Source: Tetradesmus obliquus (lineage: Eukaryota > Chlorophyta > Chlorophyceae > Sphaeropleales > Scenedesmaceae). Taken from it: a stretch of DNA of 64,000 bases. Under the pieces are notes generated by a model, which made no database searches, was not told the DNA's origin, and was given only the letters and a program-made list of their open reading frames with translations. The stretch spans positions 8,094,501 to 8,158,500 of the forward strand of contig CP126192.1 of NCBI GenBank assembly GCA_030272155.1. The letters are read 5' to 3'. The position numbers were made by a program, and so were the translations under genes. Shown here piece by piece: positions 1 to 64,000 of the stretch (within the stretch, counting starts at the first letter, position 1; every line of letters starts with the position of its first letter).

Positions 1-51
1 CTGTGTGTGGCTGCAGTGCTGCCTGCAGCTGCCGCGCTTGACTGCTGCTGC

Positions 52-3000
52 CTACTGCCCGGCTGCCCTAGCTGCCTCCAGCAGCCGCGCTGCCAGCGCC
101 GAAGGGAAGACCTCCGGTGCTGCTGCTGCTGTGTGTGGCTGTAGTGCTGCCTGCAGCTGCTGGTGCGCCTGCAGCAGGTGCTGCAGCCTCTGAGCTTGCT
201 GCTCCAGCACCTCATTCTCAGCCTGCAACAGAAAAACAACAGCAATGACAACAGCATGCAGCAATGCAGGGTGAATTCTTGGCTGGCTGAACATGCACAT
301 GAAAATGTGCAGCGCAATTACCTGCAGCTGGCACAGCGGGTCAGGAGCTGCTAGGGCAGCTGATGCCGTTGGTACCAGCGCCAGACTTCATTGTGTAGCT
401 TGAAGTGCAGATGCCATCATTTTCTGGAGGTTTGCATGCATGCTTCACCAACCGCTAATTGCATGTGCACGCACGCACGCACGCACAGCAAGCACGCATG
501 CATGCATTGTTGGCTGCAGATGTGTCAAAGTGTGCAGCTGAAGCAATAGCCACACCCCTGCCTGGCCCCTCTCCTGCAGCTGGCCAGTGCTCTGCTCCAG
601 GCGCTCAATGGCCTCCTTCCTCCTGGCATACGACCGCGCAGCATGCATGCATAATCAACTGCAGCTTCGACTGGCAAAAGCAATAGCATACATCTCCCTT
701 ACCTGCAGCTGGCCAGTGCTCTGCTCCAAACGCTCAATTGCCTCTTTCCTCCTGGCATATGACCGCGCAGCAGCCAGCCTGTTTGCCAGCTTGCGATCAA
801 CGCAGCCGCCATCATCGCTGCCAGCTGCTGCAGCCATCTCCGCCACTGCTGCTGCTGCTGCTGCTGCCAGGGATGCGCGGCTGCTCTCTGCTGCAGCTTC
901 TGGCTTACTGCTAGCTGCTGTGCACGCTGCGGCACCAGCAGCAGCAGGCTTGCCAGCCTTGCGTGTGCGCTTGGTGCCAGCAACAGCAGCAGCAGCAGCA
1001 CCAGCAGCCCTGGCTCTCTTGCTGCCCCGCGTAGCTGCTGTGCGCCGGCGCACGACATTCAAGTCGCTGTCACTGCTTGAAGCCCCCTTACCCTCATCTT
1101 CATGCCCACCTGGATGAAATTCATCCAAGGCATCAGATGCCGCTGCTGCTGCTGCTGCTGCAGTGAAATGTACCTCCGCCTGCCCCATCCCCTGCTCATA
1201 GCAGTCTGCCTCATCGTCAGAGCTTGCAGCAGCAGCTGCCAACGCTGCTGCAGCTGCTGCTGCAGCGCGCCGCTGTCGCACCAGCACAGGATACTGCTCA
1301 CCACCTGCGCTGGCTGCTGCAGAAGCTGCTGTAGTTGGGCCAGCTGTAGCAGCAGGCCTCTTCTCCTCAACAGCCTGCACTGGACAGTGCCTCTTCTTGG
1401 GCAGCACTGCTGCAGCAGCAGTACCTGCTACACCATACTGCTCACCCAATGCTGTATACTGCTGCGCCTGGCCACCAGCTGATGCCTCTGCTGTTGTGCT
1501 GCCTGCAGCAATGCCGCTGCCCGGCCTGCACGCCGTCACTAGCTCACCGCACTGCAAATCCTCCTGCTGCGCTGCCTCACCAACCTCCTGCTTGCTCTGC
1601 ACATGATCACGCAGCAACGAATTGCTCCTTTTGCTGGCAGCTGCTGCAGCGCCTGATCCTGCTGCAGCCTCCTTGCCAAGCCTGCTGCGCTTCTTGCAGC
1701 CTGCCCAAGCCGGTACCTCTGCTGCTGCTGCTGCTACTGGTGTTTTGACACCTGTCACAGCACTGCCGCGGGCACTTGCCACTGCTGCTGCTGATGATGA
1801 TTTGGCTGCTGCAGCTGGCTGGCTTGAGCTATTGCTGCACACCTCTTGCAAGACTCTACTGCCTCGAGCAGCAGCAAGGGCAGCAACAGAAGACGCTGAC
1901 AGCCGTGTTGACTGCTTGCTGCTTGCGGCACCTGCTGCTGAGAATGCACTGCCTGCCCCTGCTGCTGCTTGAACAGCAGCAGCATCAGTGCCGCTACTGC
2001 TGCCGCGCAGAGGCCGCAGACCCAAGGCCATCCGCATCAAGGCTGCAGCAGCAGGCCCCTCCTCATCATTCGGCCCTGCAGCTGCAGCAGCAGCAGCAGC
2101 AGCAGCAGGAACGCTGGAGACTCTGTGCTGCTGCGGTCGCTGCTGCTTCCGGTGGTGCTGCTGTGTGTTGTCGTTCTGATCCTGCTGTGGCTGGCTGGCT
2201 TGCATAGCAGCCACAGGTTGCCTCTGCAGTGTATGTGGCTTGCGTGCCGCCTGCTGCTGCTGCCTGCTGCTGTATGATGCTGCTGCCTCTGCCAGTGAGG
2301 GTGTTGAGATGATGAGTGGCGGCCTTTCCCTAGGCTTGCTGTTTGCGCCCCTACCTGCACTGGCCTGCTGCCGGCCCCGCACAGCGCCACCTCCTGCCGC
2401 CGCTGGCTTTTGCACCTTAGCTGCCACAGCAGGGACACCTGCAGCTGTGAGGCCCCTGTGCTGCTGCTTTTGCTGATGATGATGGTGGCTGCCCTGCGCT
2501 GCTGTGTTTGCAAAAACTGCTGTGGCTGTATCATTCGACGGCTTCTTGACATCAGGAGCAGCAGCTCCTTGCGCAAGCATAAACACTGTGTCATTTGCTG
2601 CTGCCTTGCCACTGCTGGTCATTAAATCAGCAGCAGCCGCAGCTGTCATGGACTCTGTGGCAGCCTGGCCCTGATGCTTGCTGGCAACAGCACCTGCTGA
2701 TGCACTGCTTGCTGACGCTGCTGAAGCTGAGGCTGCTGGCCGCTTGGTCCAGCGGCGCTGTAACACTGCCGCTGCTGCTGGTGGGGCATCAGCCTCAGCA
2801 GCCCCTGCTGCTGCTGCTGCAGCAGTAGCAGCCAGGGGCGCGCATGTGCCCTCATTGTGGCAGGTTGCCCCAGCACCAGCTGCTGTTGCCGCTGCTGCAG
2901 CTTCCGTGTGTGCAGCAGTGAAGCCCAGCACTAGCCGGCCCACATCCTGCTCCTGTGCATGCTGCTGCAGGTGGCCTGATGGCATAGCAGCCATGCCATG

Positions 3001-63100: not shown

Positions 63101-63867
63101 GTGACCCACCAAGCGCTTGCTTTCCGTACGATCCCCGCTGGCTGGTTTGCAGGTGACGCAGAGCGACTTTGAGGCCGCACTGAGCGAGGTGCAGCCGGCC
63201 TTTGGCGCCAACACGGAGAACCTGTCCAAGGCCATGACGCACGGCATCATCGACTACGGGGACGCCTACAGGCACCTGGCCAACACGCTGCGCACGCTCG
63301 TGTCACAGGTACGTCACCACAGCTATCAGGGGTAATGGTGCTGTCTGTGTGCATGTGTGATATGACATTTGCGCCATCATTGACTACAGGGACGCCTACA
63401 GGCACCTGGCCAACACGCTGCGCACGCTGGTGTCACAGGTATAGCACACGGTTGTCAGTGGCATGATGGTACACTGCCAGCATTGGCATACAATTTGGGT
63501 GCTCAGCTTGTGGCTTGTGCAGGCGCGTGCATCAGCAGTTGTGGTGGTGTGTTTGGACCCGCTACACCTGACATCACAGATTGCTCTGATGCTGACTGCG
63601 GTGCCTTTCTGCATGCATGTGTGCCTGCTGATATCGCCACTGTGGCCATGCTGCTGCTGCTGCTTGCTTGCTGCAGGTCCAGAACAGCGCCAAGACGCCC
63701 ATGATGAGCGTGCTGCTGCTGCTGCTGCTGCCGCTGCTTGCTTGCTGCAGGTCCAAAACAGTGCCAAGACGCCCATGATGAGTGTGCTGCTGGAGGGGCC
63801 CAGCGGCAGCGGCAAGACAGCACTGGCAGCGTCAGCAGCAGTTGCAAGCCAGTTCCCCTTCGCAAAG
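57145..63867 (+). CDS. NSF: Vesicle-fusing ATPase NSF (Sec18), 3' end missing
   Basis: AAA+ ATPase that, with alpha-SNAP, disassembles SNARE complexes after membrane fusion in the cytosol. Thirteen exons in phase: 57145-57186, 57303-57382, 57602-57671, 58042-58215, 59125-59278, 59520-59713, 60118-60204, 60594-60704, 61015-61178, 61815-61929, 62618-62794, 63153-63308, 63751-63867 (547 aa so far). The N domain (1-238) includes [13 protein letters not shown] and [12 protein letters not shown]. The D1 domain has Walker A GPPGTGKT (244-251), Walker [10 protein letters not shown] (308-316) and the following [28 protein letters not shown]. The D2 domain begins with Walker A GPSGSGKT (524-531), and the gene runs off the right edge. 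Exon 1 is short and the least certain. Almost every intron carries partial exon copies. Confidence 0.97.
58270..58353 (+). repeat. NSF exon-4 end copy
   Basis: [28 protein letters not shown] copy with donor CAG|gtgtgc; differs from the real exon ([12 protein letters not shown]...) by very few bases. Confidence 0.92.
58705..59124 (+). repeat. NSF exon-5 start copies (3)
   Basis: cgcag/ctgcag|ATCTTTG(C/T)GCC(G/C)GAGCAGCAGCTG occurs near 58712, 58843 and 58979 before the real exon at 59125, each coding IF(A/V)PEQQL(T/A)FELQG(S/A). Period about 132-146 bp. Confidence 0.92.
59808..59842 (+). repeat. NSF exon-6 end copy
   Basis: RLGIQQVK with donor AAG|gtgtgc copies the real exon-6 end RLGIQHVK. 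Confidence 0.8.
60455..60525 (+). repeat. NSF exon-8 start copy
   Basis: [15 protein letters not shown], diverged from the real [15 protein letters not shown]; soon leaves the frame. Confidence 0.8.
60944..60975 (+). repeat. NSF exon-9 start copy
   Basis: Acceptor cttgcag then GAGCTGTTCATCATCATCTT, matching the real GAGCTGCACATCATCATCTT at 61015; short. Confidence 0.8.
61383..61814 (+). repeat. NSF exon-10 start array, 4 extra copies
   Basis: tgcag|GAAGGACATGCTG(G/A)A(C/T)GAGGCCATG starts at 61383, 61491, 61595, 61699 and (real) 61815, a period of about 104-116 bp. Several copies reach [16 protein letters not shown] before diverging. The intron tails (GTGTGTGCTAAGCTTG) are also repeated. 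Confidence 0.95.
62288..62617 (+). repeat. NSF exon-11 start copies (2)
   Basis: caccgcag|ATGCAAACCAACTC begins at 62288 and 62459 before the real exon at 62618. The copies run to about LPLLA(K/E) and keep the frame at their starts. Confidence 0.92.
62855..63076 (+). repeat. NSF exon 11/12 fused copy plus exon-12 fragment
   Basis: A copy of the exon-11 end ([12 protein letters not shown]) runs directly, with no intron, into a copy of the exon-12 start ([15 protein letters not shown]). The junction is AAG|GTGACC. A second, shorter exon-12 fragment (TEVQPAD) follows near 63053. Confidence 0.92.
63373..63441 (+). repeat. NSF exon-12 end copy
   Basis: [31 protein letters not shown] with donor CAG|gtatag; the real exon reads [15 protein letters not shown]. 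Confidence 0.9.
63677..63720 (+). repeat. NSF exon-13 start copy
   Basis: gcttgctgcag|GTCCAGAACAGCGCCAAGAC copies the real acceptor and exon start at 63751 and then enters a CTG tract. Confidence 0.92.
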
Positions 63868-64000
63868 GTGCGCACTCGCAAAGCGCATTGCTGGGATCAA
63901 ATCGAGGGCCGAGACAGCAGCAGGCGGCCGCTTGGTTTTCTAAAACATGCAATAGCCCAGGAGTATAGGGATGCGTTGTTTATGACAGCACTTTGATTGC

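What the first reader, a model, noticed from the sequence alone, without database searches (positions are those of the whole stretch)
1..64000. Most multi-exon genes here carry tandem arrays of partial exon copies at exon-intron boundaries
Seen directly in the bZIP, ParB-like, CPBP, CCB1, hydrolase, S1, secretory-protein, helical-repeat and NSF genes. Each unit spans a boundary, so it includes either acceptor plus exon start or exon end plus donor, in gene orientation, with periods of about 100-250 bp. Copies range from identical to frameshifted, so the process looks ongoing. I know of no described genome feature at this density; it could be a distinct mode of intron growth or a reservoir of alternative exons.
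Basis: seen in the sequence. Interest (0 to 1): 0.95.

Follow-up and report, generated by a model that had tools for sequence, protein, structure and literature searches.

The report
Introns grown from duplicated exon edges
In this green alga many introns are padded with decaying tandem copies of the neighbouring exon's edge, which suggests that its unusually long introns grew through repeated small duplications of roughly 120 bases across splice sites.

Summary
In four genes whose exon structure I verified (NSF, hydrolase, CCB1, ParB-like), 14 of 19 introns hold 49 copies of an adjacent exon edge, 20% of intron bases. It is not confined to the window: of 20 other loci sampled across all 17 contigs, 15 carry local arrays, usually fewer (median 7% of bases against 18.7% here). 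Size, contig number and N50 match Tetradesmus obliquus GCA_030272155.1. Spacing peaks at 105-134 bp, with a second peak near twice that. The copies are absent from the NSF protein and its orthologues, some are frame-shifted, and they evolve under little constraint, unlike the real exons. Copies also lie beyond a stop codon. Best explanation: frequent ~120 bp tandem duplications, filtered by selection, lengthen introns and leave dying pseudo-exons; introns with copies are about twice as long. A reservoir of working alternative exons is not supported. Unexplained: the preferred length, and exon parts staying more alike than their intron flanks. A single case is known in potato; this density and spacing did not appear in ten capped searches.

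The parts
58142..58404 (+). NSF exon 1 (first exon of the model) end + donor, one extra copy (period 139)
   Evidence: self-BLAST; exon-edge copy; exon part 4% diverged, intron flank 36%
58689..59172 (+). NSF exon 2 start + acceptor: three upstream copies and the real exon start (period ~133)
59821..59843 (+). short copy (23 bp) of the NSF exon 3 end before a donor
   Evidence: score 36, controls up to 24; position read by eye
60446..60646 (+). NSF exon 5 start + acceptor, one degenerate copy (period 134)
61361..61876 (+). NSF exon 7 start + acceptor: four upstream copies and the real one (period ~109)
62171..62684 (+). NSF exon 8 start + acceptor: three upstream copies, one of them weaker, and the real one
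62754..63229 (+). NSF intron 8: end of exon 8, then a fused copy (62872-62989) of exon 8 end joined to exon 9 start without intron, then the real exon 9 start
63242..63441 (+). NSF exon 9 end + donor, one copy (period 130)
63649..63792 (+). NSF exon 10 start + acceptor, one copy (period 74) with CTG runs at the junction
34436..34892 (+). hydrolase exon 2 start + acceptor: three upstream copies and the real one
35083..35634 (+). hydrolase exon 2 end + donor: real edge and three copies
35645..35814 (+). hydrolase exon 3 start + acceptor, one copy
35850..37472 (+). hydrolase exon 3 end + donor: the real edge and 12 copies (periods 114-152)
37557..37881 (+). hydrolase exon 4 start + acceptor: two copies and the real one
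37873..38934 (+). hydrolase last exon end: real end with stop codon at 38102-38104, then three downstream partial copies beyond the stop
31897..32322 (-). CCB1 exon 2 start + acceptor copies
31545..31799 (-). CCB1 exon 2 end + donor copy (period 162)
31117..31311 (-). CCB1 exon 3 start + acceptor copy (period 129)
30245..30593 (-). CCB1 exon 4 end + donor copies (period ~108)
9971..10296 (-). ParB-like exon 2 start + acceptor, one copy (offset 260)
8818..9032 (-). repeat (72% identical) that by eye holds a fragment of the ParB-like terminal exon copied beyond its stop codon
   Evidence: self-BLAST; read by eye
17015..17879 (+). CPBP (Rce1-like) exon end + donor: nearly identical 113 bp units plus older copies; exon from the ab initio model
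   Evidence: Pfam Rce1-like in this gene region
18221..19050 (+). CPBP exon end + donor: presumed real edge and three copies (period ~243-260)

Best explanation
The genome of Tetradesmus obliquus suffers frequent local tandem duplications with a preferred unit of about 120 bp. Selection removes those that break a reading frame. A unit that overlaps an exon edge survives, because the exon stays whole next to one copy and splicing to the original site still gives the same protein, so the intron simply becomes one unit longer. Repetition builds arrays; the spare copies decay as pseudo-exons inside the longer intron or in the 3' flank. Shown here: arrays, spacing peak, spare copies absent from the NSF protein, decay of copies, constraint on the real exons, longer introns where copies are present. 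Inferred: the duplication process itself, its rate, and the selective filter. A secondary process, probably gene conversion between the exon and its copies, is needed for the higher likeness of exon parts.
For: Young units duplicate exon edge and intron flank together as true tandems (CPBP 17018-17431 at 99%; intron homology 20-110 bp from the boundary in 50 of 93 pairs at p < 0.05). Spacing 105-134 bp in 63 of 146 array-level spacings and 210-269 bp in 21 of 146. Non-coding arrays share the peak, less sharply (0.35 against 0.58 at 105-140 bp), and boundary periods ignore the triplet (0.33 divisible by 3) while 6 of 8 arrays inside predicted coding sequence are divisible by 3: what a selective filter predicts. 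Copies beyond a stop codon. Copies: private changes 39 synonymous, 46 not, expected fraction 0.34; real exons 16 to 4. The one unit searched in the whole genome matched only its own gene (4 places; the tool says such counts are lower bounds), so it does not look like a dispersed element. Published mean intron length is 462 bp in T. obliquus against 230-302 in three other Sphaeropleales (PMC5966456, passages).
Against: The preferred length has no demonstrated cause. Ungapped likeness near the boundary is about 0.93 on the exon side but, past the splice motif, about 0.5 and falling on the intron side (unrelated introns about 0.26), and exon distance stays near 0.10 whatever the flank distance. 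I estimate that plain neutral decay predicts an exon-to-flank ratio near 1:1.5; observed are 1:2 (gaps ignored) to 1:3 (gaps counted). In 43 of 93 pairs flank homology is not significant. Unpolarised differences between presumed real exon and copy are more synonymous (0.60 overall; 0.69 for copies in predicted introns) than a dead copy beside a constrained exon should give (about 0.48, my estimate), and copies keep a small synonymous excess (0.46, p = 0.03). Junction microhomology could not be judged; only five arrays (six rows) were young enough. In two random-locus tests the effect is weaker than in the window.
Confidence: 0.62

Rival explanations
1. Copies are working alternative exons or regulated decoy (poison) exons, kept by selection together with their splice sites.
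For: Donor GT/GC kept in 43 of 46 copies and conservation ends just after GTGnG; acceptor AG kept in 46 of 48, though the mapping needed the last intron base there. Unpolarised differences are synonymous-rich, and copies keep a small synonymous excess.
Against: Verified copies are partial, some are frame-broken, and in those I read by eye no consistent partner splice site was evident (not tested systematically). Private changes in copies are near neutral. Copies past the stop codon also keep their coding part. The NSF protein and five orthologues carry no insert at any junction. With about 5% divergence on the copy's branch, about 90% of GTs would survive anyway (my estimate).
Confidence: 0.12
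2. Copies and real exons were brought together from diverged alleles, by unequal exchange between haplotypes or hybrid genomes, so both had been functional until recently.
For: Would explain synonymous-rich differences, kept splice motifs and diverged introns at once. A relative's assembly held a second haplotype (scaffolds labelled secondary at >95% identity, PMC7955037, passages).
Against: Needs allelic intron divergence of about 20-30%, far above that haplotype identity. Private changes in copies are near neutral.
Confidence: 0.1
3. Transposable or introner-like elements insert at splice boundaries.
For: Unit size resembles that of introners (recalled).
Against: Unit sequence is that of the local exon (where other genes' introns gave the control scores); the one unit searched matches only its own gene in 104.7 Mb.
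Confidence: 0.03
4. Assembly artefact.
For: Raw reads could not be examined.
Against: Copies differ by substitutions and indels; arrays appear at 15 of 20 loci of a chromosome-scale assembly.
Confidence: 0.02
5. Ordinary tandem-repeat noise of a GC-rich, trinucleotide-rich algal genome, enriched near junctions as already reported for Chlamydomonas and Volvox.
For: Zhao et al. 2013 report tandem repeats concentrated in introns and near intron-exon junctions in two green algae (PMC3887541, abstract and passages).
Against: That paper's introduction speaks of units up to 60 or 100 bp, and GT/AC motifs are prominent in the introns (its detection limits I did not check); here the unit is ~120 bp of exon edge plus intron, with low-complexity repeats filtered out.
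Confidence: 0.11

Closest known systems
Boundary-crossing tandem duplication in the potato RdRp gene (Ma, Lan and Niu 2016, PMC4974935; outline with abstract and Results section read)
   Same: A tandem duplication that spans intron end plus exon start and inherits the acceptor.
   Different: One event that made a new intron and inserted coding sequence; here many events per gene, copies stay in the lengthened intron and the protein (NSF) is unchanged.
[quoted passage not shown]
   Same: Tandem duplication interacts with splice sites.
   Different: There the duplicated piece is purely exonic and creates an intron; here it contains an existing splice site and enlarges an existing intron.
Tandem repeats near intron-exon junctions in Chlamydomonas and Volvox (PMC3887541, abstract and passages)
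   Same: Green algae, introns, concentration at junctions.
   Different: Short-unit repeats; no exon-edge copies described in the passages seen.
Small tandem duplications at staggered breaks by Pol alpha-primase fill-in (PMC8355091, passages)
   Same: A plausible source of short tandem duplications of limited size.
   Different: Described for short (<100 bp) duplications, studied in mammalian cells; no link to splice sites in the passages seen; not tested here.

Membership tests
Boundary-spanning tandem duplication (potato RdRp type) | Duplicated unit crosses a splice site and includes both exon and intron | tested here: met
   14 of 19 verified introns carry exon-edge copies; intron flank homologous in 50 of 93 pairs
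Boundary-spanning tandem duplication (potato RdRp type) | A new spliced intron and inserted exon appear in the mRNA | tested here: not met
   NSF only, at protein level: no insert at any junction relative to structures and five orthologues; RNA not available
Rogers AGGT intron gain | Intron starts with a copy of the downstream exon and ends with a copy of the upstream exon | tested here: inconclusive
   Units carry a pre-existing donor or acceptor; a fused exon 8-exon 9 copy lies in NSF intron 8, but such copies were found at 3 of 166 junctions against 1 of 166 in the control
Introner elements | Related element copies at many unlinked genes | tested here: not met
   One unit (window 17018-17431) searched genome-wide matches only its own gene; other units not searched
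Duplicated, mutually exclusive exons | Whole exon with both splice sites and intact frame | tested here: not met
   Verified copies are partial, some frame-shifted, and near neutral. A few ab initio models at other loci do show short repeated exons, unverified

The most novel reading that the evidence does not exclude
Intronic exon copies are kept like their parent exon by exon-limited homogenisation, possibly templated by spliced RNA through cDNA, while their intron flanks drift freely. The copies would then be a living, concerted family rather than debris. It would explain the sharp fall of likeness just past the splice motif and the fused exon 8-exon 9 copy in NSF intron 8.
Probability: 0.12. 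Interest if true: 0.88.

Novelty: new variant of a known kind. Interest (0 to 1): 0.63.

Why it matters
How introns lengthen is usually put down to transposons (recalled, not searched). Here is a genome where a simple mutational process, small tandem duplication across exon edges, can be read event by event, at different ages, in ordinary housekeeping genes. It offers a testable reason why T. obliquus introns (mean 462 bp) are longer than those of its relatives (230-302 bp; PMC5966456), a natural test of how the splicing machinery picks the right site among near-identical decoys, and a warning for gene annotation, since the copies look like exons. The ~120 bp preferred length points to a specific replication or repair process.

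Tried and rejected
An unsupervised gene finder drifted to non-GT donors and was discarded; a version with fixed splice signals was used. Its models are approximate, and numbers from it are marked as such. My first polarised count with ab initio models gave copies 11:24 and real exons 10:3 (13 of 67 families had two or more usable copies); a hand-set version had one family in the wrong frame (copies 32:72, real exons 15:6) and was redone with the frame corrected and some ends trimmed. One search uses ten families with two or more copies, one of them (CPBP) from an ab initio model. Badly broken copies were left out: four of 12 of hydrolase exon 3, one of three of CCB1 exon 2, two of four of CCB1 exon 4, one of three of NSF exon 8; this biases it, if anything, towards constraint. 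Families left out altogether though they have two or more copies: hydrolase exon 2 donor, CCB1 exon 3 acceptor, and the CPBP array at 17015-17879. Hydrolase intron 3 alone supplies 14 of the 49 copies, and the fused NSF copy counts there twice, once for each exon. L018 (long satellite) and L020 (dense array) were left out and of the other-loci boundary test; L018 alone was left out of the spacing counts; both were kept, and L018. In one search only spacings of 60-170 bp were taken. In one search two copy positions (NSF exon 6, CCB1 exon 2 donor) were off register and were left in the means.

Conversion load (bad copies selected against because they can overwrite the exon) was considered: by my reasoning it predicts the same ~0.48 synonymous ceiling as dead copies, so it does not explain the excess. 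Junction microhomology could not be judged. Rfam and tRNA scans of the window found nothing. Pfam found nothing on the minus strand at 47.5-56.8 kb or 39.0-41.3 kb.

Literature: no report of this pattern was seen in the ten searches I ran. Several listings were capped (for example 15 of 551 and 10 of 3,429), and the library lacks most subscription papers, so 'not in print' is not claimed. Papers were seen as search listings, except: PMC3887541 (outline with abstract, passages), PMC7955037, PMC8226300, PMC8355091 and PMC5966456 (passages), PMC12571836 (passages and one section), PMC4974935 (outline with abstract and the Results section).
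Full report
WHAT THE GENOME IS. The window lies at 8.09-8.16 Mb of contig 2 of an assembly of 104,662,953 bases in 17 contigs; contig lengths give an N50 near 6.1 Mb (my sum), and the window is 57% GC. Published statistics for Tetradesmus obliquus GCA_030272155.1 are 104.70 Mb, 17 scaffolds, N50 6.1 Mb, 56.5% GC (PMC12571836, section read). The window's NSF protein is 97% identical to that of Scenedesmus sp. NREL 46B-D3. The species name therefore rests on assembly statistics and protein identity to a relative; an rRNA check did not complete by the tool.

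IS IT CONFINED TO THE WINDOW. No. Of 20 other 10 kb loci, at least one on each of the 17 contigs, 15 hold arrays; the share of bases runs from 0 to 65%, mean 14%, median about 7%, mean about 9% without the two densest loci (worked out). They were chosen by hand at round coordinates, not at random by machine. With ab initio gene models only, 12 of 98 introns there carry an exon-edge copy (12 of 84 without the satellite locus L018), against 14 of 32 in the window by nearly the same method and 14 of 19 with verified models. So the window is denser than usual, and ab initio models lose part of the signal. The boundary excess at the other loci is modest: 31 of 271 against 19.1 +/- 3.9, maximum 33.

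ANATOMY. A donor-side unit holds the last ~50 bases of the exon plus the start of the intron; the real edge is the 5'-most. An acceptor-side unit holds the end of the intron plus the first ~50 bases of the exon; the real edge is the 3'-most. Over 43 adjacent pairs (spacing 60-170 bp taken) the exon part has median 50 and the period median 123, quartiles 114-129.5. Nearest-copy spacings over all sequence except L018 show 63 of 146 at 105-134 bp and 21 of 146 at 210-269 bp. The same peak is present, less sharply, in arrays that touch no predicted boundary. Arrays range from nearly identical (113 bp units at 17018-17431) to badly decayed. Units also span the end of the coding region: the hydrolase's last exon is followed by three partial copies beyond its stop codon, and the ParB-like gene has a similar fragment by eye. 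Whatever makes the copies therefore seems not to need splicing.

WHAT HAPPENS TO THE COPIES. In ten families with at least two copies (nine from verified genes, one from CPBP) I counted changes private to one member. Real exons: 16 synonymous, 4 not (neutral expectation 0.36 synonymous, p = 8e-5). Copies: 39 synonymous, 46 not (expectation 0.34, observed 0.46, p = 0.03) (badly broken copies were left out). An earlier, partly overlapping set from ab initio models gave 11:24 for copies and 10:3 for real exons. Copies are thus nearly, not perfectly, neutral. Against this stands the unpolarised comparison: differences between presumed real exons and copies are 0.60 synonymous overall and 0.69 for copies lying in predicted introns (134 of 195), above the roughly 0.48 that I estimate for a dead copy beside a constrained exon. 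By my hand count from the sequences, single-copy families of the verified genes give about 27:18 and are compatible with that value; the excess comes mostly from unverified models, some of which may hold true coding repeats.

A REAL PUZZLE. Around the boundary, ungapped likeness of copy and original is about 0.93 on the exon side (0.75-0.79 forty bases away), stays high through the splice motif, then on the intron side falls to 0.55 (donor) or 0.71 (acceptor) at 5-10 bases, about 0.45-0.5 further out and 0.32-0.34 at 35-40; unrelated introns give about 0.26. Donor GT or GC is kept in 43 of 46 copies; this alone needs no selection if copies have changed by about 5%. But flanks of the same units should then differ by about 10%, and they differ from the real one's by about 21% on average while exon parts differ by 10% (40 pairs in verified genes; flank values are compressed by gapped alignment), with pairs such as 2% against 31% (NSF exon 9) and 4% against 36% (NSF exon 1). 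In 43 of 93 pairs flank homology at 20-110 bases is not significant. Exon distance does not rise with flank distance, though copies with very diverged exon parts would not have been recognised. Something seems to keep exon parts alike. Ordinary gene conversion confined to the still-similar block is the simplest idea. cDNA-templated conversion would explain it too, and would explain the fused exon 8-exon 9 copy at 62872-62989; but fused copies were found at only 3 of 166 junctions (1 of 19 verified) against 1 of 166 in the control, and precise loss between two AGGTG sites could also make one.

HOW IT MOST LIKELY WORKS. Local tandem duplications with a preferred unit near 120 bp arise often (inferred from copies of different ages). 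Those inside coding sequence are removed unless in frame: 6 of 8 such arrays have periods divisible by three, against one third elsewhere (small sample, ab initio labels). Those across an exon edge leave an intact exon next to one copy and are spliced out with the intron. Introns therefore grow by a unit at a time: introns with copies have median 593.5 bp against 304 bp without (p = 0.001), and 515 against 260 bp at the other loci (p = 0.003). Longer introns also offer more room for copies, so this correlation has no direction by itself. Taking 49 units of ~123 bp from 11,506 intron bases leaves about 290 bp per intron (my arithmetic), within the 230-302 bp of three other Sphaeropleales; published T. 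obliquus introns average 462 bp (PMC5966456, passages). The cause of the preferred length is unknown. Break fill-in as in PMC8355091 (passages) is a candidate; I could not test it.

AGAINST WHAT IS KNOWN. A single boundary-crossing tandem duplication is documented in potato (PMC4974935, Results read), where it made a new intron. Tandem repeats near intron-exon junctions are documented in Chlamydomonas and Volvox (PMC3887541, abstract and passages). Density, preferred length and alike exon parts as seen here did not turn up in my ten capped searches. It works like the potato case without creating introns; the one unit searched genome-wide does not behave like an introner, and the AGGT test was inconclusive. 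I rate it a new variant of a known kind. The main reason to care is that intron growth becomes readable event by event, and that a sizeable unexplained effect, exon parts kept alike inside introns, is open to direct tests.

Noticed in passing
39235-39437 and 46718-46921 (inverted, 93.6% identical); also 39165-39229/47034-47099 and 28877-28954/46923-46999: A dispersed repeat of a few hundred bases occurs in both orientations in the window, perhaps a mobile element.
   Followed up: no
L018 (contig 14, 2.30 Mb): Most of the 10 kb locus (65%) is tandem repeat with a spacing near 1,402 bp (positions).
   Followed up: no
L020 2494-4086 and 5219-5987 (contig 16, 1.90 Mb): Two dense arrays of ~120 bp units in which the ab initio model sees many small exons (about 12 nt, or often 48 nt, a multiple of three); possibly a protein with many exon-encoded repeats.
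   Followed up: no
62872-62989: Copy of the NSF exon 8 end fused to the exon 9 start without an intron, inside intron 8: either precise loss between two AGGTG sites or an RNA-derived piece.
   Followed up: partly
658-7770 (minus) and 21132-24755 (plus): Very long stop-free frames (1475, 895 and 1208 codons) rich in trinucleotide repeats, next to genes split into short exons.
   Followed up: no
35850-37472: Within the 13-member hydrolase array, copies at 36310, 36841 and 37461 share variants with each other, as if blocks of several units had been duplicated (higher-order repeats).
   Followed up: partly
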